Positions 135 through 18,335 are shown, counted from the stretch's first letter. The stretch: DNA of 27,945 nt from a virus (IMGVR_UViG_3300021076_000168:1-27945), one strand, 5' to 3'. Program-made: numbers and translations. Notes: generated by a model not told the origin, from the letters alone.

Positions 135-1061
135 ATGGATGGCCAATTATACATAGATGCTCCACTAACAAGTTTTAGTCAGCAGTATCGAAATGAACCA
201 GAGGGATTCATTCAGGATGTAGTAGCACCAGTTGTTCTTGTAGAAAAGAAAACCGGTAAATACGCTTACTACCCTAAGTCAAATTTGAAAGCTCCTGTTA
301 ACAGTATTCGTACTGGTGAAGGCAAAACAGCGCGAGCTAATTTCCAAGTTCAATGGAAGAGTTACACAGAGCTAAATGAACATGCTCTAAAAGACGGTAT
401 TACTAAGGATGAGTATGATATGTACCAAGATCCACTAGATCCTGAACAGGATACAGTAGCTTATTTAATGGATCAGTTACAAATCGAGCGAGAGATCGAA
501 CTTAATACCGTTATTACTAATACATCAATCGTTACTCAATATGCTGCGCCATCAACACAATGGAATGCAACTACTGGTGCTGGATCACCATTCCTAGATA
601 TTGAAGCTGGTATTAACCAGATGCAAATCTATGGTCTACGTGCTCCAAATACAGTTGTTATGGGTTACTACGTATGGAGTCAGTTAAAGAACCATCCTGA
701 TTTACTTGACCGTGTTAAGTATTCTCAACTTGGAACTCTTACAACTGAACTATTTACTGGTTTGTTTGAAGGTATTAGCAGAACTGTTGTGGCTCGTGCA
801 GCTTATGACTCTGCCGCAGAAGGTGTTACTGCTTCAAACACTTACATCATTGGTAAGAACCTTTGGTTGATCTATAGTTCTCCATCACCAAAACTTCGAT
901 CAGTAAACTTCATGCATACATTAGTACTTAAAGATGGTCGTTACGTTGACTCTTGGCCAATAATTGATAGAAAAACCACTTACTTCCGAGTAAATGATTA
1001 CTACTCTCAGTTTGTTGTCGGTCCTGAAGCAATTTACATGATTCAAGGGGCTGTAGCCTAG
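135..1061 (+). CDS. Major capsid protein
   Basis: A 308-residue protein likely to form the icosahedral shell (HK97 fold). The N-terminal part, residues 15-60, has the typical layout of this capsid group: a phrase for leaving the N-arm (EGFIQDVVAPVV), then a KKTGKYAYYPKSNL segment followed by a charged loop. A long acidic helix with DPLDPEQD lies near residues 97-106, and a compact beta-rich C-terminal half follows. No scaffold or protease domain is fused to it. The ATG at 135 is 34 bases after the previous stop, with a GAAAGG-type ribosome site upstream. Length and position next to a cement protein and before connector genes agree with the call. Confidence 0.8.
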   Translation: MDGQLYIDAPLTSFSQQYRNEPEGFIQDVVAPVVLVEKKTGKYAYYPKSNLKAPVNSIRTGEGKTARANFQVQWKSYTELNEHALKDGITKDEYDMYQDPLDPEQDTVAYLMDQLQIEREIELNTVITNTSIVTQYAAPSTQWNATTGAGSPFLDIEAGINQMQIYGLRAPNTVVMGYYVWSQLKNHPDLLDRVKYSQLGTLTTELFTGLFEGISRTVVARAAYDSAAEGVTASNTYIIGKNLWLIYSSPSPKLRSVNFMHTLVLKDGRYVDSWPIIDRKTTYFRVNDYYSQFVVGPEAIYMIQGAVA

Positions 1062-1074
1062 AAAGGATCGTAAA

Positions 1075-1578
1075 ATGGGAGTTTTCTCAAAGTTCTTAGG
1101 TCAAATTGGTGTATCTGGTAATTTCAATAACCCAGCCTACTTAGGTCCTACTTATATGCTTGAACCTGTAGTAGCTATTACAGCGGCTAATACTAACCTA
1201 GTAGCCGCGGCTGCTTCAACTTGGTATACGGTCGCACCAGCGGCTGCAACACAAATAAACTTGCCAGTACCTCTAATTGGTGTGCAATACACATTCGTAG
1301 TAACTACATCAGCAACTGGAACTAATACGCTTAAATGGCTAACCGATTCTGCATCAACCTTTATTCAGGGAACTGATATAATTGCAACAGTCGGTGGAGC
1401 ATCTACTATCTTTCAAGGTAATGGAACAAGCCATAGATCATTTAACTGTAATGGAACCACTACCGGTGGATTAATCGGTACTACATTAACATTCACTGCA
1501 TTAACAACTACAAGTTGGCAAGTAACCGCTCAGAACTTTGGTTCTGGGTCATTAGCAACTTCATTTGGAACATCTTAG
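1075..1578 (+). CDS. Beta-rich virion protein, unknown, possible capsid decoration
   Basis: A 167-residue protein directly after the capsid gene, with an AAAGGA ribosome site 7 bases before ATG. After about 30 residues it becomes rich in Thr, Ala, Gly and Ser with alternating hydrophobic residues, as in all-beta virion proteins. A central part (about residues 55-110) contains VQYTFVV and GTDIIATVGGAST. The C-terminal part has TTTSWQVTAQNFGSG, resembling the last strands of phage decoration and fibre head domains, where a conserved Trp precedes the end. I do not recognise a named family. Its position and composition suggest a structural protein exposed on the head. Confidence 0.6.
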   Translation: MGVFSKFLGQIGVSGNFNNPAYLGPTYMLEPVVAITAANTNLVAAAASTWYTVAPAAATQINLPVPLIGVQYTFVVTTSATGTNTLKWLTDSASTFIQGTDIIATVGGASTIFQGNGTSHRSFNCNGTTTGGLIGTTLTFTALTTTSWQVTAQNFGSGSLATSFGTS

Positions 1579-1596: not shown

Positions 1597-2019
1597 ATGC
1601 CAAATTTAAAAATTTTAAGTAACGTAATCCATAACGGAATCGTTTTAAAACAAGGCGTTGTAGTATCTGATTCACAACAAGATATTGAAAGCGTAGCACA
1701 AGATTTAATAGCAAGAGGGTTAGTAAAAGAAACTACTGAACCTGTAACCCACACAATGACACTAGTAAATGGTGCTCAGGAACCACTACCAGTTAATGCA
1801 TCTACAAACGATGGTCAAGCACCTAATGCTGAACAAGATGATGCCGCTAAAGCACGAGCTAAGGCAGATCAAATTGCAGCTGATAAGCAAACTCAGAAAC
1901 AAGTAAATGATCAGGCACAAAAAGAAGCAGAAACAGTTACAGTTAGTCCCACACCCGATGCTGTAAAAGAAGCTGGTCCTACAAACGAGGAAATTCAAGC
2001 CTCAGTAGCTAATCAATAA
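1597..2019 (+). CDS. Small head-module protein with disordered C-terminus
   Basis: A 140-residue protein. Residues 1-45 form a small globular domain with a VIHNGIVLKQGVVV hairpin and a helix ending in LIARGLVKE. This resembles the short domain of many phage head proteins in which a hairpin is followed by a helix and a final turn (similar in look to DUF7210), although I cannot confirm the family. From about residue 55 on the protein is rich in Ala, Gln, Lys, Asp, Pro and Thr and is probably disordered. The start has a GGAAAGGAATTAATAG-type leader. Function unknown. It probably takes part in virion assembly. Confidence 0.55.
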   Translation: MPNLKILSNVIHNGIVLKQGVVVSDSQQDIESVAQDLIARGLVKETTEPVTHTMTLVNGAQEPLPVNASTNDGQAPNAEQDDAAKARAKADQIAADKQTQKQVNDQAQKEAETVTVSPTPDAVKEAGPTNEEIQASVANQ

Positions 2020-2041: not shown

Positions 2042-2482
2042 ATGGCACAAGGTTCAACAACTGCTTTAGCATATGATTACACTACAAAAGCTGAAAGAGT
2101 TGAAGTTGTGGCTAGTTCAGGTGGTGGAGCAACAGCTTATACATATTTAAATGTTGCTACATCCACTAATGCAACCTTAGTTCAAGCTGGATCTCATAGC
2201 GGATTTAGTATTCAAGTTTTCAATATTGGAACAGTAGTAGCATTTCTAAAACTTTATAACAAAGCTACACAACCAATACCTGGTACTGATACACCTGTAA
2301 AAAACATTGCTATTCCTATACCTATTACTGGTCAAGGTGCTGCTGGTGTAGTAATTAATGTACCTTCAGGAGTTCAATTCCCATTGGGAATTGGATTTGC
2401 TATTACTGGTGCTGTTGCATTACTTGATAACACTAATGTTACTGCAGCTAACACAATCCTATTGAACTTAGACTGGTTGTAA
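2042..2482 (+). CDS. Beta-rich virion protein, unknown
   Basis: A 146-residue protein with a good AAAGGAAATGAATT leader before ATG. It is dominated by Ala, Thr, Val, Gly and Ile with alternating patterns, no Cys, and a conserved-looking middle part, FSIQVFNIGTVVAFLKLYN, followed by PIPITGQGAAGVVINVP. This design, an N-terminal hairpin, a hydrophobic beta segment with a sentence-like 'NIG...LKLYNKAT...PG' pattern and a final L-N-L-x-W-L strand, is common for small trimeric decoration or base domains of phage structural proteins. The next gene starts 1 base after its stop, so the two are probably translated together. The family is not certain. Confidence 0.55.
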   Translation: MAQGSTTALAYDYTTKAERVEVVASSGGGATAYTYLNVATSTNATLVQAGSHSGFSIQVFNIGTVVAFLKLYNKATQPIPGTDTPVKNIAIPIPITGQGAAGVVINVPSGVQFPLGIGFAITGAVALLDNTNVTAANTILLNLDWL

Positions 2483-2483
2483 A

Positions 2484-3224
2484 ATGAATCCCTGGCCTAT
2501 AACTAGTCCGCAACAAGCAACTCTAACTGGCAATGTCGCTGGTGCTACTACCAGTGTTAAAGCTTTTGGATCTAATACAACTACTGGTAACTTTCTAGCT
2601 ATTGTATTTCAGACTCAAAATGGTGGAGCTGTTACTGTTGCGGATAATGTTAATGGTTCATGGTCAAATGCATTAACTAATATCCAGTCAAACAACGGTA
2701 ACTACAATATCTTTTACAAAGAGAATGTAACAGGTGGAGCTACTACTGTAACTGTTACCTGTCCAAGTAGTGATTATATTACTGGTGTGATCTATGAATT
2801 TAACGGTGTGACTACTTCAGGATCATTCTATGAAGCTATGAATAACCAATCACAATTAACTAGTGGAACAAATATAGCAGTACTACCATCTGGAAACCCC
2901 TGGAACGCAACTAGCACTTCTTCAGAGCTAGTTATAGTCGGAATGTTCCATAATAATAGCTCGACAACTGTTGCTGTGGATAATCCTAATGGATATTCAG
3001 GCTTTGTTAATCAGTTAGGTAGTTATCAGACTGGTTTTTCAGGTGGAGTTACAGCTTCAGCTTGGTATAACTCAACCAACGGTACTCAACCAACATTAAA
3101 CTTTGCTTTTGATGCTAGTTCATCAGGTGCAGATTATACAAATAATGTAATGGCTATATTTTCAGCTCAAGGAAGTACACTGTTTGTTCCACAACCTGCT
3201 CTTGGTACTTTGGGTGTTGGATAG
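2484..3224 (+). CDS. Secreted-type beta-sandwich protein, probable head fibre or decoration
   Basis: A 246-residue protein with the pattern TTTGNFLAIVFQTQ...VTVADNVNGSW...YNIFYKENVTGGATTVTVTC...YITGVIYEFNGV. This is a widespread beta-sandwich repeat seen in phage and bacterial surface proteins: a core strand 'G-N-x-L-A-I', a 'D-x-x-G-N-x-W' turn, then 'Y-x-x-N-x-T-G-G-A-T-T-V-T-V' and 'E-F-x-G-V'. The rest, about residues 115-240, looks like the completion of the same jelly-roll fold. It has no signal peptide, as expected for a virion protein. The ATG follows the previous stop by 1 base with no separate ribosome site, suggesting coupled translation. Confidence 0.6.
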   Translation: MNPWPITSPQQATLTGNVAGATTSVKAFGSNTTTGNFLAIVFQTQNGGAVTVADNVNGSWSNALTNIQSNNGNYNIFYKENVTGGATTVTVTCPSSDYITGVIYEFNGVTTSGSFYEAMNNQSQLTSGTNIAVLPSGNPWNATSTSSELVIVGMFHNNSSTTVAVDNPNGYSGFVNQLGSYQTGFSGGVTASAWYNSTNGTQPTLNFAFDASSSGADYTNNVMAIFSAQGSTLFVPQPALGTLGVG

Positions 3225-3259: not shown

Positions 3260-3895
3260 ATGAAAAATAATAAACATTCCAAAGACATTAAACTTCCGTT
3301 AATCGGTAGAGTTGGTGTTCATCACGAAACATCAGGTTCTGGTGTTGGCGATCTTAAGGGTAATTTATTCTTTGGCACTAATTTACAGATTCAAGTGCTA
3401 AGAAATGGCGTACCACTTAAGAACAAAGAAACCATCAAGAGATGGGCTAGATTTTGGAATAACATTAGAGCTAATGAGACTATTTATAATGTAGGATCAG
3501 GAACTGTAGTTTATGCAGGTGTTAGATTGATGTCTCAAGATACAGCAGTATCTGCAGGAGCAGCAGCTCTAAATGTATTTAAGTATCATGGTGTCGGTAC
3601 AGGTGTAACCGCAAGTACATCAACTGATACAGCATTACAAACAGCTATTGGTACAACAGCAACAGCAGGTACTAATGTAAACGCTGGTGCAAGTCCTAAC
3701 GCTACAGTTACATCAACCGCAACAGTAGGTCCTTTCGGAAGTCCTTATGCAGTAACTGAATGGGGATTATTCAACCAAGCAACACTATCTGGTGCTACTA
3801 TGTTTGATCACTTAGTATTCGCAGCTATTAACTTAGCAGCTACTACTGATACAATAGTAATAACATTTACACTAACACTAACTTCAGGGAGTTAA
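3260..3895 (+). CDS. Phage structural protein (virion surface, GTG-T/EWGLF type)
   Basis: A 211-residue protein with a motif set I recognise from many phage structural proteins of unknown role: NVGSGTVVYAGVRLMSQD, then FKYHGVGTGVTASTSTDTAL, then a linker rich in Thr and Ala, then AVTEWGLFNQAT and a closing strand DTIVITFTLTL. In those relatives the segment before the EWG motif binds a polar loop, and the last strand completes a beta barrel. About 70 basic N-terminal residues contain NNKHSKDIKLP and a Trp-rich helix (KRWARFWNN), which may anchor it to the capsid. It lies inside the head-module block of surface proteins. Confidence 0.6.
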   Translation: MKNNKHSKDIKLPLIGRVGVHHETSGSGVGDLKGNLFFGTNLQIQVLRNGVPLKNKETIKRWARFWNNIRANETIYNVGSGTVVYAGVRLMSQDTAVSAGAAALNVFKYHGVGTGVTASTSTDTALQTAIGTTATAGTNVNAGASPNATVTSTATVGPFGSPYAVTEWGLFNQATLSGATMFDHLVFAAINLAATTDTIVITFTLTLTSGS

Positions 3896-3900
3896 AAACT

Positions 3901-4191
3901 ATGGCAAATAATTTTGTAATAATGGGTGATGATGGTGAAGGAAACGCAACTGTCAGAATGTTTGTTAATGGACAGCCTTATGATGAAATTTTCCAATATG
4001 TAGTTCCAGTATCTGCAGAAAATCAATTAACACCTATAGTAAATACTAGAATGACTGCACTTGCTGCAGCTCCACCTGCTACATCTGTTGATACACCTAC
4101 AATTGAAACCCCTGAAACATTGACTCCAACTGTTGCTGATGAAGAAGTCGCAACTGATCCAGCTAACATTGGAGCTAAACCAGCTAGTTAA
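3901..4191 (+). CDS. Small acidic protein with Pro/Thr-rich tail, unknown
   Basis: A 96-residue protein starting 5 bases after the previous stop. Residues 1-45 form a short beta-type domain (FVIMGDDGEGNATVRMFVNG, then a hairpin). Residues 55-96 are rich in Pro, Thr, Ala and Glu and are probably disordered. No family is recognised. The N-terminal segment FVIMGDDGEGNATVRM looks like one small sandwich motif. Tight spacing to the genes on both sides puts it in the same late operon. It may be a chaperone-like or linker component of the surface proteins around it. Confidence 0.45.
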   Translation: MANNFVIMGDDGEGNATVRMFVNGQPYDEIFQYVVPVSAENQLTPIVNTRMTALAAAPPATSVDTPTIETPETLTPTVADEEVATDPANIGAKPAS

Positions 4192-4231: not shown

Positions 4232-4759
4232 ATGGCACGACAAACATGGAATCAGGTTCTAGTAGTAGCAGAAACATCAGGAGCTGCATATACTAACTCA
4301 ACCGCAGCAACATCAATATTACCAACACCAGCAGTATTTACATTACCTGCTAACCTTTTTGATATCGGTGTATCACTAAGGATTAAAGCATCAGGTCAGA
4401 TTTCAACAACAGGTACACCAACACTTACACTTTCACACTATCTTGCAGGTGCTACTTGGGTAGCTTCACAGGCTATAACAACTGGTTCAGGTATGACATC
4501 AGTTACTTGGACATATGAGAATGTTATTACAGTTAGGGCTATCGGTAACGGTACTACAGCTAACGCAATGTTTGTTGGTCAAGCAATGGGTATCGGTGGT
4601 GCTGGTCTTATGACTGCAATTCCTGCAACATCTCCAACTGTTTCTTCAGGATTTAACTCAACACAGGCTAACGCTTTAGACTTTTACGCAACTTGGGGTA
4701 CAGCTTCAGCTTCAAACACTATTACACTAGTAACTTACACAGTCGAATTGCTCAACTAG
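4232..4759 (+). CDS. Phage structural protein of the LPANLFDIG type
   Basis: A 175-residue protein whose layout I know from many phage structural proteins, especially of actinobacterial phages: an N-terminal strand with AYTNSTAATSILP, the motif FTLPANLFDIGVSLRIKASG, then a beta strand pair (PTLTLSHYLAG), a 'TWTYENVITVRAIGNG' region, an AMFVGQAMGIG turn and a closing ALDFYATWGTAS...ITLVTYTVELLN. The fold is probably an all-beta sandwich and the function is virion surface decoration or attachment. A GATAGGAGAAT leader stands before ATG. Confidence in the family resemblance is fairly high, but the biochemical role is unknown. Confidence 0.65.
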   Translation: MARQTWNQVLVVAETSGAAYTNSTAATSILPTPAVFTLPANLFDIGVSLRIKASGQISTTGTPTLTLSHYLAGATWVASQAITTGSGMTSVTWTYENVITVRAIGNGTTANAMFVGQAMGIGGAGLMTAIPATSPTVSSGFNSTQANALDFYATWGTASASNTITLVTYTVELLN

Positions 4760-4780
4760 TAGAAAGGTAAACTCCTTTCT

Positions 4781-7700
4781 ATGTATCCTAATACAAATCT
4801 AGGAACACCAGGTCTTGGTCCACCTGATCTAGCAAAATTTCAGGCGGATTCAAGATCAACTACCAATTCAGGGTTTAACTATCTAGGTGGTTATCGCTAT
4901 AATTTAATTCCTAATCCAAACTTTGAAACTAATACAGGTAACTGGCAAGGTGCAGGAATCGGAACATTAACAGTAACTCAAGATAGTAACTATTCTTATG
5001 CAGGAAAATATAGTTTAAGACTCGTACAAACAACAGGCAATGTTGATAGTTATGCTTTATTAAGATTTAATAATCTACCACCTGGAGTATATACATTTTC
5101 AGCATATGCATACATTAGTTCATACACTAGTGGAGCAAGTAATAATAGATTGATGCTAGTCGCTGCTGGTTCACAATCAATACCTGTAAATATAGTTGAA
5201 TTAGATAATGCAGCACCTATTGTTGGTCAATGGGTTAGATATAGTATTACTACTACTGTAACTGCTAGTAACTTCTTGCAAGTAAGGTTATATGCACCAC
5301 AGGGCACAATAAATTGGGATAATGTGATGCTTGAACCATCAGCAACTCTTGGAGATTATTTTGATGGTTTAAATCAAGCACAAAACTATCATTCACAATG
5401 GCTAGGAACTCCGAATCTATCATCATCTTACGCAATATTAACACCAGGTGCTAATACAGGATCTACAGCGATTCCTTTATCTACAAATGTATTTCCTGGT
5501 CTAAGTCCTAATCTATTTCAATTTGCTGGTGTAGATCGCAGATCAACAGAGACAACAGGATTAAGTCAGCTAGGTAGAACTAACATGCTAGTTAATCCAG
5601 GCTTTGTTGGTAGTACAGGATGGGGATTAGGAATTAACGGTGGGAATGGTGTAATAAGTTATAGCCAAACTAACCCTGCTAATTTAACTTCATATTCAGC
5701 TAAAGTAACCTTTTCAACTGCTACTGCTTTTCTTCATCAGAATGTGAACATATTAAATAGTCATACTTATACTGTTAGTGTTTGGGTATATATTGCCACT
5801 AACTCAGGTAATGGAACACCTAGAATAACTATTGATGGATCTACCACTACATCATTTATTGGTGGTCCTTTAGTGGCTAGTGGAACACCGAGTATTGGTT
5901 CATGGCAAAAAATAACCAATACATTTACCATCCCAACTGGCGGTATTTACTCAACTAATACTGCAACAGGTGGAGTAATGCTAACTAATGTTGTTCAGGT
6001 GATATTTGATTTTACTTCATCAGCAAACACTGTTTTATATTGGGCTAATCCAATGATGGAAGATGTCACTTTTCTATCTAGTCCAAACACATATTTTGAT
6101 GGCAGTTATCCATTACAGAATTATTTAACTAGTTGGCTAGGTGCACCATATGTTTCACAGTCTTTTGCACTATATGCACCAGGAGTAAATGCAGGTAATA
6201 CAGAATTGACTCAATTTAATAGTGTATTCCCAAGCTTCACTCCTGAGATTGAACAATTTGTTAGTGATCCTAGATCTCCAATAAATTCAGTTAATTTACC
6301 AGTTCCAATAGCAGGTTCTATTACAACTTATGGACTTCAATTTGATGGTTCGCAAAACTATGTATCACTAGGTACAATGGGTAATTTTGGTCAAAACTTA
6401 GCACAAGGTTTCTATGCTAGTTTCAATATTAATACAACATATACAGGCGGTCAGGGTAATATATTCGGAACAGTAAATGTTAATACTACCGTAGTTTTAG
6501 GTGTTTATCTTACAGCTACTACTTTAGTAATTAGATATAGAGATAATGTTGGCAACGAATTACAAGCATCATGTTTATCAGCTAGTATAGCGAATGGTAA
6601 TAATAATTTAGTAACTATTACAGCTAATCTATCAACAAACACAGTTATCTTTACTGTAAATGGTAAAACATTAAACACTTCATATGTTTTTCAGCAAACA
6701 CCATCTAGTTTTATAAACTTTGCATATCCTATGGTTATAGGTGCTTGGAATTTAAGGGGTGTTATTAGTAGCTTTTTGTCTGGAACAATTACTAACTTCC
6801 AAATCGGCACATCTCCTACTAATTTATATGGTTCTTACGCCATGCAAGAAAACGGTGGAACTACAATCTATGATAATTCAGGTTATCAGAATAATGGTAC
6901 TTTAACAGGTACACCAGTTCCTGCATGGGCTTTAATGCAATCATTATTAACTGCACCTACTTATGTAAACTTTGATCCACCAGGTATAAATCCAATGGGT
7001 ACATGGGGAACTAATTTCTTGCCTGATGGTAGGAGTACACAGACTACTGGATTACCACCGCCACAATATGCAATAACTTCTTTAGGTAGTGGTAGCATAT
7101 CAATAGCATTAAATAATAGTGTTATACAACAATCTCCTAGAAGTGCTTTAACGGTCATTGTTTGGTTCTACAATAATGCAACTAGTGGTAATCTTGGTAA
7201 CTTAATAAATGTACCAAATGGTTATGGATATGCTACAGAAGTTAATGGCTGGTTAATTACTCCTGCAGTTGGTAGACAATACTACTCACTAAATCATGGT
7301 AATCCTGTAATTCAGGGTAATTCTAATGGTTATGGTGCAGTTTATCAACAAACACTTCAAAATGCATTTACATGGGATGGTCAAACAATAATAGGTTATC
7401 TAAATGGCTTGAATCAAAATAATGTTGGAGAAGTCAATAGTAGTAATAGTGTAAAAGGATTTCTACTTACTCAATTACCTAATATTTGGACAATACCTAG
7501 TATGCCTGCAGGTTACTCTCTAAAAGATTTACAAATCTATAATGTTCCACTAACAGCTCAACAAATAGCTTTTCTATATCAAAATCCTAGCCAATTAGTT
7601 TCTGGTACACCACCGATATTATGGTTTCAGATGAATGAAGGACAGGGTAAAACTATTATTGATTCTATGAATGGTATTCAAGCTACTTTAACCAACTTCT

Positions 7701-8365
7701 CTTGGAGTCCATCAATAATAAATAGTCCTGCATACCCAATGGCACAAGGCAATGTTCCTACAACCGTATTTCCTGGTTCTCCGTTATCTGATATAAGTCA
7801 GATCCCTGATATAAGATCAACTCAAACAAACTTCATTGGCATAATAAATTACCTAAGTCTATACGCTATTCTTACTCCTATCGGTGTTATAGCTAACTCT
7901 ACACAAAAAACTTTGACCGCTATAATCACTCCTGTTGGAACAATTGCAAAGCAAACACTTAAATCTTTAATTGCTTCTATTACTCCATCTGGTTTATTCA
8001 CTAGCAGACAAACCAATAAGACATTAACTGCTAACATTACACCTACTGGTACAACATCCAAACAAACTAACAAATCAATGACAGGTAATATTACTCCTAG
8101 TGGATCTATTGCTAAATCTACTCATAAATCAGTCAGTGGATCGCTAACTCCATCAGGTCAACTTGCTAAAAAGATTAATAAATACCTAAGTGCTAGTATT
8201 ACTCCTTCAGGTAGTTTGAATACTCAATTACACCGTATAGCAGTAACAATCGGTAGAACAGCTAACTTCTTACGACAGAATCCATCAGATATAACTACTA
8301 TTACTCAAAGACCTTCAGATATAACTCAAACAAACCAAGATAATGAACAAACATATTTAGATTAA
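4781..8365 (+). CDS. Giant multi-lectin virion protein, probable head fibre/adhesin
   Basis: A 1194-residue modular protein. Residues about 41-200 and 269-445 are two similar carbohydrate-binding-like sandwiches (CBM4/9 look): each starts with a [LM]-x-x-N-P-x-F motif and ends in a YFDG...QNY/W-L-G-x-P segment typical of phage lectin proteins. Residues about 519-675 and 770-935 look like LamG/concanavalin-type lectin domains. A phrase resembling VFPG-x-SP...D-x-RST-x-TTG recurs about five times between modules. Residues about 1026-1152 hold seven tandem repeats (listed separately). The likely job is binding host surface glycans. It lies in the head block, before the connector gene, so head-fibre placement is inferred; a tail position cannot be excluded. 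Confidence 0.65.
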   Translation: MYPNTNLGTPGLGPPDLAKFQADSRSTTNSGFNYLGGYRYNLIPNPNFETNTGNWQGAGIGTLTVTQDSNYSYAGKYSLRLVQTTGNVDSYALLRFNNLPPGVYTFSAYAYISSYTSGASNNRLMLVAAGSQSIPVNIVELDNAAPIVGQWVRYSITTTVTASNFLQVRLYAPQGTINWDNVMLEPSATLGDYFDGLNQAQNYHSQWLGTPNLSSSYAILTPGANTGSTAIPLSTNVFPGLSPNLFQFAGVDRRSTETTGLSQLGRTNMLVNPGFVGSTGWGLGINGGNGVISYSQTNPANLTSYSAKVTFSTATAFLHQNVNILNSHTYTVSVWVYIATNSGNGTPRITIDGSTTTSFIGGPLVASGTPSIGSWQKITNTFTIPTGGIYSTNTATGGVMLTNVVQVIFDFTSSANTVLYWANPMMEDVTFLSSPNTYFDGSYPLQNYLTSWLGAPYVSQSFALYAPGVNAGNTELTQFNSVFPSFTPEIEQFVSDPRSPINSVNLPVPIAGSITTYGLQFDGSQNYVSLGTMGNFGQNLAQGFYASFNINTTYTGGQGNIFGTVNVNTTVVLGVYLTATTLVIRYRDNVGNELQASCLSASIANGNNNLVTITANLSTNTVIFTVNGKTLNTSYVFQQTPSSFINFAYPMVIGAWNLRGVISSFLSGTITNFQIGTSPTNLYGSYAMQENGGTTIYDNSGYQNNGTLTGTPVPAWALMQSLLTAPTYVNFDPPGINPMGTWGTNFLPDGRSTQTTGLPPPQYAITSLGSGSISIALNNSVIQQSPRSALTVIVWFYNNATSGNLGNLINVPNGYGYATEVNGWLITPAVGRQYYSLNHGNPVIQGNSNGYGAVYQQTLQNAFTWDGQTIIGYLNGLNQNNVGEVNSSNSVKGFLLTQLPNIWTIPSMPAGYSLKDLQIYNVPLTAQQIAFLYQNPSQLVSGTPPILWFQMNEGQGKTIIDSMNGIQATLTNFSWSPSIINSPAYPMAQGNVPTTVFPGSPLSDISQIPDIRSTQTNFIGIINYLSLYAILTPIGVIANSTQKTLTAIITPVGTIAKQTLKSLIASITPSGLFTSRQTNKTLTANITPTGTTSKQTNKSMTGNITPSGSIAKSTHKSVSGSLTPSGQLAKKINKYLSASITPSGSLNTQLHRIAVTIGRTANFLRQNPSDITTITQRPSDITQTNQDNEQTYLD
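4901..6250 (+). repeat. Tandem pair of CBM-like modules within the giant lectin
   Basis: Two related modules sit side by side at about 4901-5530 and 5585-6250. They share the beginning (asparagine-proline-x-phenylalanine), the YFDG segment, a WLG-x-P motif, an LTPGANTG/YAPGVNAG turn and a closing VFP-x-x-x-P phrase. They are diverged at DNA level, so this is an old duplication rather than a recent one. Boundaries are approximate and were judged by eye from the protein. Confidence 0.55.
7858..8240 (+). repeat. Seven tandem 18-19-residue ITPSG-type repeats
   Basis: The C-terminal part of the giant lectin has seven copies of a short unit with consensus [IL]TP-x-G-x-x-x-K-x-T-x-K-x-[LM]-[ST]-[AG]-x. 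Known phage proteins with the same unit are usually virion proteins, where it probably forms a regular beta stem. The copies differ at many positions, so recombination at DNA level looks old. A short, mixed tail with two PSDIT motifs follows. Confidence 0.7.
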
Positions 8366-8394: not shown

Positions 8395-9402
8395 ATGTCT
8401 CAAACCCTAAAAATTGCAAACTTCAACAATAACAATATCGTAGCTAGGACAGTTGTAACTAGTGATTTAGCTGCAGGAGTAAATTCCATACCTGTAGAAA
8501 ATAGTAATGATTTTGTAGCAGGTCCTATACTTTTTGGAGCACCAGGTTCTACTAATCCAGAAATTCTAACAATTACAGCACCAGCTTCAGCACAACTATT
8601 ACCAACAAGTTCAGTTACTAAATTACCTCATAATAACTTTGATCCAATTATTCAATTATTCGGAAGTCAGATTAATGTCTATAGTGCTAATGATATTTAC
8701 GGTAATGGTACTCAACCACCAGACACTAACTTCACTAAACTAAGTGGATCTCCATATAACATTGATGCTAACCAAGTATTTACAACTGTAGTTGATAGTG
8801 CAGGTGTTGCTGGTATGTGGTACAAATTTACTTACTGGAATCCAACTACTAGTCAAGAAACAGCTCTAGTAGACTCTAATGCTGTTCAAGTAGGTCAAAC
8901 TCATTATGTAAGCTTAGATCAGATTAGGAGAGCAGCAGGTTTTACTAACTCTCCAAACGTAACAGATGATATTGTTGCTGAGTTTAGAGATGCGGCTGAA
9001 CGAGAAATAAATGGAGCACTACTACCAGTCTATCAATTCCCATTACCTCAACCGGCCAATCCATTGATAGTCCAGATCGCTAAAAATATTGCCGCTGGTG
9101 AACTTCGATACGAAATGTTCCAAAACTCAGCACCACAAATAGCTGCGGATGCTATGGGAAAGGCTGATGCCGCGAGGCATGGTGGAGGATCACATACTTC
9201 GCTTGATGAGTTAGTAACAAGAGATGTGGTGCTTGAGGATGCTAATTTTACAGAACTAACTATTGAAGAAGGACATGGTTTTGGTGGTTGGCCTGATGCT
9301 ACCACTCAATTTGTTAGTCAAAACCAAGAGGATAGTAATGGAAATTTAATTGATCTTGGTGGTGACGATGGCCATCAATTTCAAATAACACAGGATTATT
9401 AA
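8395..9402 (+). CDS. Head-tail connector (gp6/gp36-like) with N-terminal beta extension
   Basis: A 335-residue protein. Residues about 175-265 are a helical domain typical of phage head-tail adaptors: YVSLDQIRRAAGFTNSPNVTDD, then EFRDAAEREINGAL, then LIVQIAKNIAAGELRYEMF. In relatives this domain forms the ring between portal and tail. The N-terminal ~150 residues are a beta-rich extension with VVTSDLAAGVNSIPVENSNDF and GSTNPEILTI, a motif pair seen in extended connector proteins. The C-terminus has a GFGGWPDATTQF motif. The stop codon overlaps the next gene's start by one base, which links it to the morphogenesis gene. Confidence 0.7.
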   Translation: MSQTLKIANFNNNNIVARTVVTSDLAAGVNSIPVENSNDFVAGPILFGAPGSTNPEILTITAPASAQLLPTSSVTKLPHNNFDPIIQLFGSQINVYSANDIYGNGTQPPDTNFTKLSGSPYNIDANQVFTTVVDSAGVAGMWYKFTYWNPTTSQETALVDSNAVQVGQTHYVSLDQIRRAAGFTNSPNVTDDIVAEFRDAAEREINGALLPVYQFPLPQPANPLIVQIAKNIAAGELRYEMFQNSAPQIAADAMGKADAARHGGGSHTSLDELVTRDVVLEDANFTELTIEEGHGFGGWPDATTQFVSQNQEDSNGNLIDLGGDDGHQFQITQDY

Positions 9403-9878
9403 TGTTATCAGTAACAGTTCACATAACAGGCCTTACAGAAGAACAAACTAAACTTACTAAACTAAGTGCTAGTTTTAGTGATTTTAGTGGTGTACTTGCT
9501 AGTTTAGGATCTCAACTAATCATGTTTTTCAGCCAAACTGTATTTGTATCTGAAGGAGAAGCGTTGGGTGATCCTTGGCAACAATTAACAACCGCAACTC
9601 AAACAGAAAAGGATAAAAAATGGCCTGGTCGTGGAATGGAAGTTCGAACTGGTGCTATGCAGGGTTCTTTTTATGATGATATAACACCACAAAGTTTATT
9701 TATATCTAACAGAGCTAGTTACTTTCCATATCAACAACTTGGTACATCGACTGGTCCAGGTCGCGGACATAATATCCCATCACGAAAAATGCTTGGTGTT
9801 AATGATACAGTTATTGGTATGATTCAAACTGAAATTGAAGCAAATGTAAGAGCTAAAATTGAGGCACTAAACCTATAA
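9402..9878 (+). CDS. Phage virion morphogenesis protein (Mu gpG-like, tail completion)
   Basis: A 158-residue protein of the gpG-like virion morphogenesis family. Visible signs are the N-terminal strand (VTVHITGL), a helix, the FVSEGEALGDPWQQLTTAT region (family pattern F-x-x-E-G-x-x-W-x-x-L), then the RTGAMQGSFYDD motif (typical 'R-T-G-x-L-x-x-S'), the strand LFISNRASYFPYQQ, and the R-K-M-L-G turn before the C-terminal helix. Relatives complete the head-tail joint. It is sandwiched without gaps between connector and terminator genes, and both junctions are one-base TAATG overlaps. Confidence 0.8.
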   Translation: MLSVTVHITGLTEEQTKLTKLSASFSDFSGVLASLGSQLIMFFSQTVFVSEGEALGDPWQQLTTATQTEKDKKWPGRGMEVRTGAMQGSFYDDITPQSLFISNRASYFPYQQLGTSTGPGRGHNIPSRKMLGVNDTVIGMIQTEIEANVRAKIEALNL

Positions 9879-10399
9879 TGGAAGATTCACAAAGCGAATA
9901 TGCAAAAGACACAGTAGTAGGATTAATTGAACTATTCCAGACAAATTTTGGAGATGTCTTTAAATCTTACTGGGAAGCAACACCTACTTCACAACCACCT
10001 GATGTTGATTTTCCGCTTGTAATTGTACAAAAAATGTCAGGTAAAGCAACTTTGGGACCTACATCGACTGATGATGATACTGAAACAATTGTGATTACTG
10101 TCATGTTAAACATGGCTGATGATATTGGTTCGGCTAATGTGCGAACAACAACTATGCGACATCTCCAAAATCTGATAGAGGGTCAAGATCCATCAACCAA
10201 TCAATATAAAACTGGTACATTCTTCTATATTCTTCGTACATATCTAACTCTATTACAAAGTTCAGGCAATATTTGGCTAATCGATTCAGATATATCGGTT
10301 AAGTATGATCAGGTGCCAAGAAAGGATATGCCAGCAATCTCAATAGCTGATATAACCATGACAACACAGCGAAGAGTGATTGTTTCAAATAGACAATAA
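9878..10399 (+). CDS. Probable tail terminator / tail completion protein
   Basis: A 173-residue protein following the gpG-like gene with a TAATG overlap. It begins with a helix (VVGLIELFQTNFGDVF), then PPDVDFPLVIVQKMSGKA, an ETIVITVMLNM strand and a helix with RTTTMRHLQNLIEG; a closing ADITMTTQRRVIV strand follows. This helix-strand layout with a conserved 'x-F-P-L-V-x-V' strand is like that of lambda gpU-type tail terminators, and the gene stands at the position of that gene in siphoviruses. I do not see a diagnostic motif, so the role is inferred mainly from order and size. Confidence 0.55.
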   Translation: MEDSQSEYAKDTVVGLIELFQTNFGDVFKSYWEATPTSQPPDVDFPLVIVQKMSGKATLGPTSTDDDTETIVITVMLNMADDIGSANVRTTTMRHLQNLIEGQDPSTNQYKTGTFFYILRTYLTLLQSSGNIWLIDSDISVKYDQVPRKDMPAISIADITMTTQRRVIVSNRQ

Positions 10400-10439: not shown

Positions 10440-10673
10440 ATGGCAACATACAAAACCAAAGACGGAACACAGACAGGCGTTGTACCTGGTGTAGGCGAAA
10501 TTGTAAATGGATTATTGAAGAACGCTCCAGCAAATCTGGAGAACCCGAACCTAGAACTAGTGACAGAGAGTCAACCAGCACAGAAAACCACACAATCAAA
10601 TGCCCCTGTTGCTCCAGTTGCCTCGATCCCAGTACAAGAAACATCAAAAACAACTAACGAGGAGACTAAATAA
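10440..10673 (+). CDS. Small tail-module protein, unknown
   Basis: A 77-residue protein just before the tail tube gene. A strong GGAG site 7 bases before this ATG selects the frame over a competing open frame on the same strand starting at 10427, which has no ribosome site and an unnatural Arg/Cys-rich composition. Residues 1-30 hold a short ordered part (TYKTKDGTQTGVVPGVGEIV, then a helix), the rest is rich in Pro, Thr, Gln and Ala. Its last base overlaps the next start codon (TAATG), so it is co-translated with the tail tube. Function unknown. Confidence 0.6.
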   Translation: MATYKTKDGTQTGVVPGVGEIVNGLLKNAPANLENPNLELVTESQPAQKTTQSNAPVAPVASIPVQETSKTTNEETK

Positions 10674-12079
10674 TGGCAACTAACTCACACGGTGAATGGG
10701 TAGGTAATTTAGGTTATGTAGCTTTTGCTACCGAGACAACCGTTGGAACAGCAGTAACACCTACGACCTTCGCATTACTCGACAATGAAACAATGACCAC
10801 TAATTATAATCTTGAAGATCAGATGCCAATTGCTGGTATTCCAGTTGAAACTTATCAGGTTTTGCCAGGACTTCGAGATCATAAAGGTGATGTTGAAATC
10901 ATTGCAGAACCAAATACTTGTGTAGAACTTGTTGATATGTTACTAACTCGTGGAGTTGTCGCTACAATTTACACATTCACAGTAACAAGTGCAAATGCCA
11001 CTATTGGTGCAACTTATACTAATAATTCAATTACTTTTACTGTTAGTGCTACAATTGCCTCTCAAACTACTCTTGTTACAACCGGTGCTGGCGCGCCATT
11101 AACTTCTGGTACACTTACTAGAGCATCTGGAACTGGTGATACCACTATTACATTCTCAGCCTTCACGACCGGAACAAGCACTTGGCCTTTTACTCTTAAC
11201 GGAAACACAATACCTAAAAGTAAGACTATGGATATTTCAACAGGCAATGTTGTTAAACGATTTGTGGGTGTTCAAGGATCAAAATTAGTTCCAGTATTTT
11301 CTAAAAACCAATTGAATCTGAAGATAAGTGTTTCTGCATTAGGTTCATTTCAGGGTGCAGTACTTTTATCAACACCTACAGGCTCAGGACCATACACTGT
11401 AGTTTTCGATCCAACTTACGACACTAATCCAACTGCAAAATTAGTTGTTGGTGACTTAGTTCGTTTTTATCACTCAGGATCACAATACATCGATACTGCA
11501 ATAGTAGCCATTACTAACGCAACTACTATTACTGTAACTGCTAATGTAACTTCAATGGTTCAGGGTGACATTATGTACTTGAGACCCGCTACTGAGACAT
11601 TAACACTTGTATCACCTTTCTTATGGTCTAACACTCAATTTTGTTTTGGTGCTACAGCCTCAGCCGCCTTATCCGCTTCTCAAACAAGAGTTGAACAAAG
11701 CTCTGTATGGGAATGTGATTACTCATTTGAAAGTGATAGTGGTTCACAAAGGTCAGGAAGTGCCGATCCAGCATCACTAATTAGAACTGTTGCTAAAACT
11801 GGTTTGACGATCAAAAAGTTCTTCGATACCGCTGATGACATAATTAACTTCAATCAGACCAATAAAACTGCTTGTGTAATTAGGCACTATGCAACTTCAG
11901 GAAGTACAACCTATGAACTTAGAATAACTCTTAACCATCTTGTAACTGATGATCCATTGCCAAAACTTAAAACTAAAGCAGTAAACTACAGTTCTATCAA
12001 ATACCACGCTCAATATGACACAACTGATGCTCAACTGTTTGATATCAAAGTAATTGATAATGTAGGCACGATAGGATAA
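10673..12079 (+). CDS. Major tail tube protein with inserted domains
   Basis: A 468-residue protein that stacks as rings to form the tail tube. Its beginning, GNLGYVAFATETTVGTAVTPT, followed by the DNETMTTNYNLEDQ and LPGLRDHKGDVEIIAEP segments, is the usual start of long siphovirus tube proteins. Residues about 99-168 are an Ig-like insertion with the well-known pattern 'YTFTVTSANATIGATYTNN...TFTV...G-T-L-T-R-A-S-G-T-G-D-T-T-I-T-F'. Residues about 229-310 look like a second inserted beta module (KLVVGDLVRFYHSGS...TITVTANV). Such insertions normally project from the tube. Most tube proteins are 150-350 residues, so these account for its size. It precedes the chaperone and tape measure genes as in other siphoviruses. 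Confidence 0.8.
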   Translation: MATNSHGEWVGNLGYVAFATETTVGTAVTPTTFALLDNETMTTNYNLEDQMPIAGIPVETYQVLPGLRDHKGDVEIIAEPNTCVELVDMLLTRGVVATIYTFTVTSANATIGATYTNNSITFTVSATIASQTTLVTTGAGAPLTSGTLTRASGTGDTTITFSAFTTGTSTWPFTLNGNTIPKSKTMDISTGNVVKRFVGVQGSKLVPVFSKNQLNLKISVSALGSFQGAVLLSTPTGSGPYTVVFDPTYDTNPTAKLVVGDLVRFYHSGSQYIDTAIVAITNATTITVTANVTSMVQGDIMYLRPATETLTLVSPFLWSNTQFCFGATASAALSASQTRVEQSSVWECDYSFESDSGSQRSGSADPASLIRTVAKTGLTIKKFFDTADDIINFNQTNKTACVIRHYATSGSTTYELRITLNHLVTDDPLPKLKTKAVNYSSIKYHAQYDTTDAQLFDIKVIDNVGTIG

Positions 12080-12681: not shown

Positions 12682-14781
12682 ATGGCAATATTACCCTCCG
12701 ATTCATCAGCTGGAACAGTCGGTGTTGAAATTGTTACGGTTGCCGATAATACAGGTACTGACTCGGCTAAAGCTGGTCTTGCCGAACTAGATGCTGAATC
12801 AAAAGCATTAACAAGTTCGGTTGCGGGTGCAACTTCTGGATTAACCAATTTTAATAATGGGTTAAAGAACGTAGGTGGTCAAATGACTGCTGTGGGAGGT
12901 AGTTTATCTAAATATATAACACTACCAATCGTAGGTATTGCCGCAGCATCAGTTAAGATGGCAATGGACTTTCAGCAGTCTATGGAACTTTTGCATACGA
13001 ATGCAGGAGTGCCACAGGCGGCTATAGCGAGTCTATCAAGTCAAATACTAGATTTGGCTGGTGTAGTAGGTCAAGACCCGAACTCACTCGCACAAGCTTT
13101 TTATCATATAGCTACGGCTGGTCAGGGAATATATACGACAGCTCAAGAATTAGATCAATTAAAGATAGCTGCGGAAGGTGCAGCCATTGGACAAGCGAAC
13201 CTTGATGACACTACTTATGCATTAACATCTACTTTGGCGGCCAATGTTAAAGGTGCAACTAATACCTCTCAGGCAATGGGTACTTTGCTTGGAATAGTTC
13301 AGGCTGGAGACATGCACTTATCTGATTTGAATGATGTTATTAGCACGGGTCTAATGGGTACATTATCAACCTTTGGTGTCTCTTTGCAATCAGCTGGTGC
13401 CGCACTTGCCGATTTCGGTGACTTAGGTGAGAAGGGTGCTATATCGGGTACGCGATTGCGCATGATGCTTGCATTGATGGCTAGTCCAAGTGCTGCAGCC
13501 GCTAAAATACTTGGTGACCTCGGATTGACGACTGGCGAGACTGCTACGGCTACTGGAACAATGAACCAAGTCTTTGCGGAAACAGGACTAACCACTACAA
13601 AACTCGCAGATGACCTCCGTCAACCAAATGGTATATATGTTGCTATAACTGATCTTAAAACTCAATTAGAAAAAGCTGGTTTATCTGCAAGTCAAACAGA
13701 CACGGTACTCGCTAAAGCTTTTGGTGGTGGTAGAACGGATGCGGCATTACTTCAATTATTAGATACCACAACTCGACTAGATGTTAAATATCAACAAATC
13801 GGTCAGGATAGTGGTAATTTTGCACAAAACTGGGAAGCTCAACAACAAACAATGAAACAACAATGGGATAAGTCTTGGGGTGCTATTCAAGCTGATCTTA
13901 TTAGAATTGGTGAATCAATTATGCCTGAAGTTAGTCACGCCATGAATGACTTTGCTTCAGCTGTCGGATCAGTTACTAATTGGTATAACAAACTAAGTCC
14001 AGGTCAGAAACAGTTTGTAATAGATGCCGCAGGAGTATTAGCGGCAATGGGACCTGTATTAGTTATATTTGGTACATTGGCTAAATCATTAAGTAGTATT
14101 CTTACACTAACTCAAACAGTTGGTAGATTTATGAGTTTAGCATTGCCTGGCGAAGTTGCCGCTGGTGCGACCGAAATGGAAGGTTCAATGGCTGGTGTGG
14201 CTGGTGCTGAGGGTCTAGGAGCTGTTTCTGCAGCAGGAGTGGCACTTGCAAGCGTTTTTAATGTAGTACTAGTTGCAGCCGTCGAATATTGGGCATTAAA
14301 TTCACTAATCCATATTAAGGCTGTACATGATGCACTGGGTGGTCTAAATAGCGATCTTAAACAATGGTCAAGTGATTTCAATACTAATGTGGTACAGCCA
14401 GTTACTAATTTCGTAAATAAAATAGATGGGGTTAAGGGTACTGCTAATAACGTAACAGCTCCGTCAAGTGGTAGTTTTGGATCACAAAACTTTCTGAATA
14501 ATATAAAGAGCTGGTTCGCTACCGGCACCAACTATGCCCCTGGTGGTTGGTCAGTTGTTGGTGAAAATGGACCGGAAGCAATGTATGTACCTCAAGGATC
14601 ACAGATTAAAACAAATACTGAATCAGGGGGATTAACTGGAGGTGGTTCTTCAACCACCGTAAGTATTGGTAATGTATATATTGCAAACCCAGCTGCCGCT
14701 CAAGAATTTTATAGACAATTAAATCAGGATACACTTAACTTAGGTAAAGGATTAACCACTAATCAAGGAGTAACTACTTAA
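12682..14781 (+). CDS. Tail tape measure protein (TP901 type)
   Basis: A 699-residue protein that sets tail length and is passed into the host. From about residue 90 it has the TP901-type core: MAMDFQQSMELLHTNAG, then SSQILDLAGVVGQDPNSLAQAFYHIATAG, then many helices. Two hydrophobic stretches near residues 445-480 and 515-545 fit the membrane segments common in tape measures. At about 619-640 it has APGGWSVVGENGPEAMYVP, the frequent C-terminal signature of this family. By the usual rule of about 0.15 nm per residue, the tail would be near 100 nm long. It follows the chaperone gene and has a GAAAGG site. No muramidase or peptidase domain is visible. Confidence 0.85.
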   Translation: MAILPSDSSAGTVGVEIVTVADNTGTDSAKAGLAELDAESKALTSSVAGATSGLTNFNNGLKNVGGQMTAVGGSLSKYITLPIVGIAAASVKMAMDFQQSMELLHTNAGVPQAAIASLSSQILDLAGVVGQDPNSLAQAFYHIATAGQGIYTTAQELDQLKIAAEGAAIGQANLDDTTYALTSTLAANVKGATNTSQAMGTLLGIVQAGDMHLSDLNDVISTGLMGTLSTFGVSLQSAGAALADFGDLGEKGAISGTRLRMMLALMASPSAAAAKILGDLGLTTGETATATGTMNQVFAETGLTTTKLADDLRQPNGIYVAITDLKTQLEKAGLSASQTDTVLAKAFGGGRTDAALLQLLDTTTRLDVKYQQIGQDSGNFAQNWEAQQQTMKQQWDKSWGAIQADLIRIGESIMPEVSHAMNDFASAVGSVTNWYNKLSPGQKQFVIDAAGVLAAMGPVLVIFGTLAKSLSSILTLTQTVGRFMSLALPGEVAAGATEMEGSMAGVAGAEGLGAVSAAGVALASVFNVVLVAAVEYWALNSLIHIKAVHDALGGLNSDLKQWSSDFNTNVVQPVTNFVNKIDGVKGTANNVTAPSSGSFGSQNFLNNIKSWFATGTNYAPGGWSVVGENGPEAMYVPQGSQIKTNTESGGLTGGGSSTTVSIGNVYIANPAAAQEFYRQLNQDTLNLGKGLTTNQGVTT

Positions 14782-15569
14782 TGAATCCTGGTACAACTGT
14801 TTTATATAATGGTAATTCACTTCAAACAACCAACATTATTACTAATGGTATTGCACATTATGATAGTCCGGTAGTTGATGCTAAATCATACTCAGTTGCA
14901 CATGCCAATGCTAGTGCAGTTCCGTTTACAAGTTACCCAAATAAAGTTATAACCCTAAGTGGTCAGTTATGGGTCAGTACTGGTGTAAATACAATGGATG
15001 CTTTAATTGATACTTTTAAAGGATATTTAACTGCACAAAATGCGAACTTAGATATTGGCTATAATGGCGGAACTCGTAGATATAATGTACTGGTAGTTAA
15101 TAAAACCACCATAACCAGACCGAATGATTATATTGGTGCAAAATTTTCAATTGACTTCTTTTGTCAGCCATTTGGAATGGATACCTCAACAACAACTGTA
15201 GTAAGTGCAACAGGTCGAACATTGGCAACTTACACAGATAGTAGTTATACCTTCTTAGGGAATGCACCTTACCAGTTGCCAATTTATACAGTTACATACT
15301 CAGCAATAGGATCAGCACCAGTTTCAGGTACAGTTAGTATTGGCAATAATACCAATGGTCAGCAAATAAATGTAACTAGAACTTGGTCGGCAACGGATGT
15401 ATTGGTTATAGATACAACTAAAAAGATAGTTACGGTAAATGGTATAGCGGTTAATTTCACAGGAGCATTTCCAGTATTCCCGCCAGGTACTAGCTCGATT
15501 GGCTATTCAGATAGTTTTACTAGTAGAACATTTAACTATAGTGTGGTTTACACTAAACTTTACTTCTAA
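14781..15569 (+). CDS. Distal tail protein (Dit-like)
   Basis: A 262-residue protein after the tape measure, joined by a TAATG overlap. Features of the Dit family are the first strands (LYNGNSLQTTNIITNGI), the central segment IDTFKGYLTAQNANLDIGYNGGTRRYNVLVVN, and the strand AKFSIDFFCQPFG near residue 120, all matching the N-terminal ring domain. The C-terminal part from about residue 160 is beta-rich (VTYSAIGSAPVSGTVSIGNN) and resembles the galectin-like second domain of larger Dit proteins. It forms the hub ring that links tube to tip. The next gene is the hub/tip protein, as expected. Confidence 0.75.
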   Translation: MNPGTTVLYNGNSLQTTNIITNGIAHYDSPVVDAKSYSVAHANASAVPFTSYPNKVITLSGQLWVSTGVNTMDALIDTFKGYLTAQNANLDIGYNGGTRRYNVLVVNKTTITRPNDYIGAKFSIDFFCQPFGMDTSTTTVVSATGRTLATYTDSSYTFLGNAPYQLPIYTVTYSAIGSAPVSGTVSIGNNTNGQQINVTRTWSATDVLVIDTTKKIVTVNGIAVNFTGAFPVFPPGTSSIGYSDSFTSRTFNYSVVYTKLYF

Positions 15570-17867: not shown

Positions 17868-18335
17868 ATGTCAAAAATTTCTGCATATAGTTATGATACA
17901 AGTCCAACCACTTCCGATTATTTACTCGGTAACTCTGCTAGTGGACCTACAACTCAAAAATTTCAAATAGCAACACTTCTTGCTTTACTTGGTGCCGGTG
18001 GTACAGAATTATCTTCTCAGATTCAATCTCAGGCTAATAGTGGTACTGCTGGGGGAACTATTTATTGGATTAATTTGGGGGGGTTAAAGATACTATGGGG
18101 GAATACACCCACCCAAGTCAGTTATGGCGCACCAGCTTATACGGTTGCATTTCCTACCTTTTTTACTACTATACAAGCTTTTGGAGCTTGGGCTAATACT
18201 ATGGGTACTGATATTGCTCAAACAGTTTTATGGGCTGAGACTCCAGCTACAACCGGTGGAGCGATGTATTTTGACACCCTAAGCGGCTCGGCTGGCGCGC
18301 ATACCGCAGCTTCATACATAGTGGTAGGAATATAA
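17868..18335 (+). CDS. Small tail fibre-like protein (gp53-like C-terminal domain)
   Basis: A 155-residue protein. The first 50 residues look like a repeated fibre start (SAYSYDTSPTTSDYLLGNSASGPTTQKFQIATLLALLG), a motif pattern common at the beginning of phage tip proteins. The rest resembles the C-terminal domain of gp53-like tail fibres: IYWINLGGLKILWGNT, then a beta strand with VAFPTFFTTIQAFGAWAN and a final ASYIVVGI strand. Such domains form trimers and bind the host surface. The placement directly after the hub gene and before the lysin fits a fibre at the tail tip. Family assignment is from pattern and not certain. Confidence 0.6.
   Translation: MSKISAYSYDTSPTTSDYLLGNSASGPTTQKFQIATLLALLGAGGTELSSQIQSQANSGTAGGTIYWINLGGLKILWGNTPTQVSYGAPAYTVAFPTFFTTIQAFGAWANTMGTDIAQTVLWAETPATTGGAMYFDTLSGSAGAHTAASYIVVGI

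What the first reader, a model, noticed from the sequence alone, without database searches (positions are those of the whole stretch)
4781..8365. Giant multi-lectin protein inside the head module
Four lectin-like domains, five short inter-module phrases and a seven-repeat tail in a 1194-residue protein lie between the capsid and connector genes, not near the tail tip. Together with the five to seven beta-rich neighbours this suggests head-bound fibres that stick to glycans, for example mucus or a host cell coat. Such an arrangement would be relevant for hosts that live on other cells, such as Saccharibacteria, but host identity is only a weak guess.
Basis: inference. Interest (0 to 1): 0.6.

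Follow-up and report, generated by a model that had tools for sequence, protein, structure and literature searches.

The report
Sugar-binding fibre encoded beside phage neck
An uncultured tailed phage carries a very large, modular, sugar-binding fibre gene wedged between its capsid and neck genes; its relatives carry a different sugar-binding, sugar-cutting or fibre protein in the same slot, so this is probably a swappable second grappling device on the head or neck, of a kind already suspected in a few other phages.

Summary
ORF 4781-8365 encodes 1194 residues: two CBM_4_9 domains, one weak LamG/ConA-like domain and one unassigned module, five 'DxRS[TP]' linkers, seven 18-residue repeats and a 34-residue end. 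It lies between the major capsid protein (135-1061) and a Mu gp36-like neck adaptor (8395-9402).

Comparison with 14 other uncultured genomes that share this adaptor shows a pattern. The capsid-adaptor interval is far more variable than the flanking genes. In 11 of the 15 genomes the gene directly upstream of the adaptor encodes a tandem-repeat, fibre-like protein. Other genes or domains in the slot include LamG, a GH5-like glycosidase, pectate-lyase beta-helices, LRR and ConA-like modules. The repeat proteins share a weak C-terminal motif while their N-termini differ, the reverse of classic tail fibres. A separate small receptor-binding-like gene sits at the tail tip.

Best explanation: a glycan-binding fibre on the head side of the virion, probably at the neck, C-terminus anchored and lectins outward, for reversible first contact. 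Main rival: a tail-borne fibre encoded out of place (a similar pair lies downstream of Dit in L076). Physical location is untested; the Saccharibacteria and mucus guesses are unsupported. Precedents: phiCbK gp76, lactococcal NPS, HFTV1 turrets, Hoc.

The parts
135..1061 (+). major capsid protein, left boundary of the variable block
   Evidence: PHROG 1005 E 2e-58; 83%, 45% and 40% identical in relatives
1075..1578 (+). small virion-type protein after MCP, shared with L037 (46%)
   Evidence: no family
1597..2019 (+). small protein whose type recurs after MCP (47% in L037; weakly matched in G009)
2042..2482 (+). small hypothetical protein, beta-rich by eye, no relative found
2484..3224 (+). hypothetical protein, beta-rich by eye, no clear relative
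3260..3895 (+). fibre-partner protein: relatives precede repeat fibres in G009, L085, L075 and L076
   Evidence: PHROG 5417 E 2.7e-7
3901..4191 (+). small protein in the same position as one in G009 (no significant blastp match)
4232..4759 (+). small protein with relative directly before the repeat fibre in G009 (32%)
4781..8365 (+). 1194-aa modular glycan-binding fibre candidate
4901..5293 (+). module 1: CBM_4_9 (aa 41-171)
   Evidence: Pfam PF02018
5582..5942 (+). module 2: CBM_4_9 (aa ~268-388)
   Evidence: Pfam PF02018 4.7e-8
6293..6985 (+). module 3: ConA/LamG-like by eye only (aa 505-735)
   Evidence: no significant family; AlphaFold single-sequence model unusable
7097..7570 (+). module 4: Laminin_G_3 (ConA-like lectin), below curated cut-off
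7874..8251 (+). seven 18-residue repeats (putative shaft)
8261..8362 (+). C-terminal element weakly shared with repeat fibres of relatives (putative anchor)
   Evidence: blastp to G009 fibre includes it; leave-one-out profile: 2/600 background windows and 0/202 other C-termini score as high
8395..9402 (+). neck adaptor (Mu gp36-like) with long N-terminal extension; right boundary
17868..18335 (+). small tail-tip receptor-binding-type protein, separate from the fibre
   Evidence: position after baseplate, similar N-term and variable C-term in five genomes

Best explanation
The protein is a structural adhesion fibre mounted on the head side of the virion, most likely around the neck (portal vertex/adaptor). 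Its C-terminal element would dock to the particle, the seven 18-residue repeats would form a short beta-structured shaft, and the linked CBM_4_9 and LamG-like modules would point outward and bind surface glycans. This would give a reversible, multivalent first contact that holds the particle near the cell until the separate tail-tip receptor-binding protein engages. The slot is an exchange site where relatives place other lectins or glycan-cleaving enzymes. Shown: sequence modules, gene position, the recurring gene pair (repeat fibre then neck adaptor), variability, a weak shared C-terminal motif, a separate tail-tip gene. Inferred: virion incorporation, neck/head location, polarity, glycan binding, order of adsorption steps.
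For: Domain hits; linkers and repeats far above chance. Fifteen distinct genomes with the same adaptor: the gene immediately upstream of the adaptor is a tandem-repeat protein in 11 (window, L037, G001, G009, L085, L086, L088, L093, L095, L096, L098), with periods of 14, 18 or 39 residues. L098 repeats the architecture with a different lectin: DUF2341 + Laminin_G_3 (9e-14) + repeats. L037 has a GH5-like protein and G010 a 2532-aa protein with two pectate-lyase beta-helix stretches in the same interval. In five genomes, only 5 of 43 genes inside the interval have half-length matches in two or more of the others, against 34 of 56 outside (Fisher p 5e-7, not corrected for relatedness or contig ends). 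C-termini of repeat fibres share a motif while N-termini differ. Every genome whose post-baseplate gene was read has its own tail-tip RBP-type gene. Precedents.
Against: No virion data. HFTV1 shows that head-turret proteins gp30/gp31 are numbered far from MCP gp19, and Arthrobacter phage relatives of module 1 are annotated 'minor tail protein', so gene position is a weak guide. The repeat + partner pair sits downstream of Dit in L076. Four of 15 genomes break the pattern (L087, L092, L094, G010). The C-terminal motif is weak, with 3 of 10 members near background. Structure prediction of the fibre failed (pLDDT 31).
Confidence: 0.47

Rival explanations
1. It is a tail fibre or side fibre (attached to tail tube, terminator or baseplate) whose gene merely lies in the head module.
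For: Homologous repeat-fibre plus partner pair lies downstream of Dit in L076 and between terminase and portal in L075; CBM_4_9 relatives in Arthrobacter and Microbacterium phages are annotated minor tail proteins, after the tape measure in Ottawa and Corgi and upstream of the terminase in Molivia; the cassette's other fibre class carries the N-terminal domain of PHROG 8469 'tail fiber'; G010 keeps LamG/CBM modules inside its Dit.
Against: In this lineage the gene pairs with the neck adaptor across genomes whose adaptors are 34-60% identical; a tail-tip receptor-binding-type gene is already present; polarity (variable N-term, shared C-term) is reversed from usual tail fibres.
Confidence: 0.3
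2. It is a capsid-lattice decoration (Hoc- or HFTV1-turret-like, many copies on hexamers), not a neck structure.
For: Follows a run of small beta-type genes after the MCP; Hoc, pb10, phi29 gp8.5 and SPP1 gp12 are cell- and carbohydrate-binding capsid decorations; HFTV1 turrets carry a galactose-binding-like domain and a deacetylase-like domain.
Against: The most constant neighbour is the neck adaptor rather than the MCP; adaptor and MCP are both conserved, so sequence cannot separate the two; no sequence link to Hoc or turret proteins was found.
Confidence: 0.15
3. It is not a virion protein but a phage-encoded adhesin or enzyme acting on host or neighbours, as proposed for ConA-like 'auxiliary' genes of Patescibacteria phages.
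For: Groundwater Patescibacteria phages carry ConA-like lectin genes interpreted as auxiliary genes (PMC12911398).
Against: Gene embedded in the morphogenesis operon, paired with the neck adaptor, built like a fibre with repeats; no signal peptide or membrane anchor was noticed by eye (not tested with a predictor).
Confidence: 0.07

Closest known systems
Caulobacter phage phiCbK gp76, candidate head filament (PMC3556154)
   Same: Giant protein with a ConA-like lectin domain, encoded nearer head than tail genes, no BLAST relatives, repeat expansion; phage also has separate tail-tip fibre candidates.
   Different: 2799 aa, glycine/alanine-rich; [quoted passage not shown] no sequence match to our protein among 50,697 phage records. 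gp76 itself was not detected in virions.
Neck passage structure (NPS) of lactococcal 936 phages (PMC4759559, PMC9863714)
   Same: Accessory, variable gene upstream of the major tail protein gene, present or absent between relatives; may carry a carbohydrate-binding module; immunogold placed it at the neck.
   Different: Ours lies before the adaptor, next to the MCP block, and is far more modular; no sequence relation tested or found.
HFTV1 capsid turrets (PMC12494034)
   Same: Head-borne galactose-binding-like domain combined with a glycan-modifying domain, proposed for reversible first adsorption; parallels our lectin or enzyme alternatives.
   Different: Archaeal virus, two-protein turret, genes numbered far from the MCP; different enzyme.
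T4 Hoc, T5 pb10, phi29 gp8.5, SPP1 gp12 (PMC7602432)
   Same: Head decorations, dispensable for stability, help cell or carbohydrate binding; Hoc is several beta domains plus one capsid-binding domain.
   Different: Hoc uses Ig-like domains and no long repeat shaft; no homology found.
Arthrobacter/Microbacterium phage CBM_4_9 'minor tail proteins' (Molivia gp23, Ottawa gp44, Corgi gp13)
   Same: Closest sequence relatives of module 1, ~30% identity over aa 38-219 including the YFDG...W.GT region.
   Different: Encoded after the tape measure (Ottawa, Corgi) or before terminase (Molivia), not between MCP and neck adaptor.
Dit proteins with inserted carbohydrate-binding modules ('evolved Dit')
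   Same: G010, a relative, carries Laminin_G_3 plus CBM-like modules inside Dit.
   Different: The window's Dit (14781-15569) has no such insert.

Membership tests
CBM_4_9 (PF02018) | score above curated cut-off | tested here: met
   45.5 bits whole protein, 35.1 and 33.9 bits for modules 1 and 2, cut-off 25.9
Laminin_G_3 / ConA-like (PF13385) | score above curated cut-off | tested here: inconclusive
   module 4: 25-26 bits against cut-off 27.6, E 1.6e-7 to 2.2e-5; module 3: no hit
phiCbK-type head filament (gp76) | giant lectin protein in head gene block | tested here: met
phiCbK-type head filament (gp76) | sequence homology to gp76 | tested here: not met
   tblastn against 50,697 phage records: no match at 1e-5, and only Arthrobacter, Microbacterium and Acinetobacter phages at E up to 1
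phiCbK-type head filament (gp76) | filament seen on the head | not testable with these tools
   needs electron microscopy
Neck passage structure / neck fibre | accessory variable gene beside connector/major tail genes | tested here: met
   absent in L092, different in L094
Neck passage structure / neck fibre | located at the neck of the particle | not testable with these tools
   needs immunogold labelling or cryo-EM
Canonical tail fibre / RBP | conserved N-terminal anchor with variable C-terminal tip | tested here: not met
   for the repeat fibres the shared part is the C-terminus; N-termini differ
Canonical tail fibre / RBP | encoded after tape measure/Dit | tested here: not met
   not so in the genomes with this adaptor; but met by the distant counterpart in L076
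Hoc-like capsid decoration | capsid-binding terminal domain | tested here: inconclusive
   a weak shared C-terminal motif exists, binding partner unknown

The most novel reading that the evidence does not exclude
A dedicated neck/head 'adapter slot': these phages keep a conserved C-terminal plug and repeat shaft next to the neck adaptor and swap the outward N-terminal part freely between lectins, glycosidases and spike-type beta-helices. This would be a second, reverse-polarity adsorption machine that evolves independently of the tail tip.
Probability: 0.3. Interest if true: 0.65.

Novelty: new variant of a known kind. Interest (0 to 1): 0.47.

Why it matters
Most host-range work looks only at the tail tip. 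If a whole lineage of environmental phages carries a second, rapidly exchanged glycan-binding or glycan-cutting device near the neck, host-range prediction and receptor searches should read the capsid-to-adaptor interval too. It also supplies a set of natural lectin, glycosidase and spike alternatives on what may be one scaffold, usable for direct tests of what head- or neck-borne fibres do, a role known so far from a few isolated cases.

Tried and rejected
AlphaFold of the full protein (single sequence) gave pLDDT 31 and was not used. The adaptor model (5 sequences, pLDDT 56) gave only the helical neck core; its N-terminal extension stayed unmodelled. The idea that the adaptor's N-terminal extension is related to the PHROG 8469 fibre anchor was tested by profile comparison and rejected (probability 0.3%). 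Host search: DNA of the window against 380 Patescibacteria genomes gave mostly short low-complexity-like matches; endolysin profile 0/380; baseplate profile found mostly a widespread N-terminal domain plus a distant tail module in one genome; RecT at 51% in one Patescibacteria genome was kept as a weak hint only. A genome-contig scan with the baseplate gave one 29% partial match in a Wolfebacteria bin, judged too weak. No relatives of the giant protein or MCP were found by single-sequence scans of viral contigs; they were reached through RecT, MCP, baseplate and adaptor alignments. Promoter and terminator scans were at or below shuffle level. Period 17 for the G001 repeats was my reading by eye; computation gives 14.

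Full report
WHAT IS THERE. The window is an IMG/VR virus record of 27,945 bases, unnamed. Structural genes run left to right: MCP 135-1061 (PHROG 1005), eight genes to 8365, neck adaptor 8395-9402 (PHROG 195/Mu gp36), tail completion 9402-9878 (PHROG 26), a conserved tail-terminator-position gene 9878-10399, probable major tail protein 10673-12079, tape measure 12682-14781, Dit 14781-15569, baseplate-type protein 15579-17834, small tail-tip protein 17868-18335, putative endolysin 18372-19931; RecT and YqaJ genes lie on the other strand. ORF 4781-8365 encodes 1194 residues: CBM_4_9 twice, an unassigned module 3, a LamG/ConA-like module 4 slightly under cut-off, five DxRS[TP] linkers (5 observed, 0.011 expected by shuffling) and seven 18-residue repeats.

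RELATIVES. No cultured phage has a full-length relative; the nearest are ~30% matches of module 1 to 'minor tail proteins' of Arthrobacter and Microbacterium phages. Related uncultured genomes were found through RecT, MCP, baseplate and adaptor. Five genomes (window, L037, G001, G009, G010) were compared gene by gene. MCP, adaptor, tail-completion and major tail genes are conserved (27-83%), but the block between MCP and adaptor is not: 5 of 43 block genes against 34 of 56 other genes have half-length matches in at least two other genomes (the p value ignores relatedness and contig ends). The block is 6.4-7.3 kb in the four genomes where both ends were read and at least 9.8 kb in G010, where the MCP lies off the contig. 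In cultured phages with the same MCP family the corresponding stretch holds only small genes.

WHAT FILLS THE SLOT. Window: CBM_4_9 x2 + LamG + 18-residue repeats. G009: 857-aa beta modules + 18-residue repeats, C-terminus homologous to the window's (E 1e-14). G001: 414-aa LRR-like protein plus a 417-aa protein of 14-residue repeats. L037: 519-aa GH5-like protein (PF00150 1.2e-7) plus repeat proteins of 119 and 204 aa. G010: a 2532-aa protein with two pectate-lyase-type beta-helix stretches (PF12708 1.7e-14), while its Dit carries an inserted LamG (1.3e-18) and CBM-like module. The adaptor scan added ten further distinct genomes (L097 was not read, and L098 and L099 encode the same fibre and are counted once). 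Over 15 genomes, the gene directly upstream of the adaptor is a tandem-repeat protein in 11. L092 lacks one, L094 and L087 have other fibre-type proteins, and G010 has a short stub. L098 combines DUF2341, LamG (9e-14) and repeats, i.e. the window's architecture with a different lectin. L095 and L096 look ConA-like at the N-terminus by eye only. L086 has a right-handed beta-helix protein (PF13229 9.5e-9) in the interval.

POLARITY. Repeat fibres differ at the N-terminus and share a C-terminal motif (e.g. FLRQNP..I...Q.P..I...QD.NE..L). In a leave-one-out profile test seven of ten C-termini scored above at least 98% of background windows; three did not. This suggests a C-terminal anchor with N-terminal modules outward. 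It is an inference from weak sequence similarity. A second class of slot protein (G001 414 aa, L037 519 aa) instead has a shared N-terminal domain of PHROG 8469 'tail fiber'; G010 aligns with it more loosely.

TAIL TIP. In window, G001, G009, G010 and G011 the gene after the baseplate protein is 155-215 aa with a similar N-terminus and different C-terminus, as expected of a receptor-binding protein. So the slot fibre is probably an additional device.

WHY NOT CERTAIN. A relative of gene 3260 followed by a repeat fibre lies between terminase and portal in L075 and downstream of Dit in L076; a more distant counterpart lies upstream of terminase in cyanophage BUCT-ZZ01. HFTV1 turret proteins are numbered far from its MCP. 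Gene order is thus suggestive, not proof. The pairing of repeat fibre with neck adaptor across 11 genomes is the best argument for the neck; adjacency to MCP genes also fits capsid decoration.

HOST. Nothing identifies it. RecT at 51% identity lies beside phage-like genes in one Patescibacteria genome, a spring-water phage has RecT at 54%, and a distant tail module sits in another Patescibacteria genome. The endolysin found nothing in 380 genomes. Patescibacteria are possible; Saccharibacteria specifically are unsupported, and mucus has no support.

KNOWN COUNTERPARTS. phiCbK gp76, a 2799-aa ConA-lectin protein near head genes and candidate head filament (PMC3556154), is the nearest idea and was argued on the same grounds. 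The lactococcal NPS (PMC4759559) is an accessory neck gene localised by immunogold; NPS may carry CBMs (PMC9863714). HFTV1 turrets (PMC12494034) and Hoc/pb10/gp8.5/gp12 (PMC7602432) show head-borne carbohydrate or cell binding. Novelty is therefore a new variant of a known kind: a new unrelated family, with a lineage-wide exchange slot beside the neck adaptor as the distinctive part.

Noticed in passing
10961-11173: A ~70-residue domain inserted in the probable major tail protein is ~70% identical to an insert in the post-MCP protein of G009, so the same mobile domain occurs in a tail-tube gene and a head-module gene.
   Followed up: partly
L050 790-2739 (minus strand): G010's Dit is split by an inserted Laminin_G_3 (1.3e-18) and CBM-like module related to the window's module 1.
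   Followed up: partly
4761-4780: AGAAAGG-TAAACT-CCTTTCT hairpin directly before the fibre's ATG; it contains the likely Shine-Dalgarno sequence and may regulate translation.
   Followed up: no
L035 12506-12958: HNH-endonuclease-like ORF inside the G001 slot; may help drive exchange of the cassette.
   Followed up: no
21906-22532: Basic repeat protein (KKAA.TRK..G) related to a G010 gene that sits next to the neck adaptor there.
   Followed up: no
G170 C13 ~136-151 kb (L081, L082): Phage-like region (RecT and terminase/portal-like ORFs) with a reverse-transcriptase-like ORF nearby in a Patescibacteria genome; RecT 51% to the window.
   Followed up: partly
L037 10036-10578 and 10578-11120: Two neighbouring paralogous 180-aa proteins in the slot, also paired in L086.
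   Followed up: no
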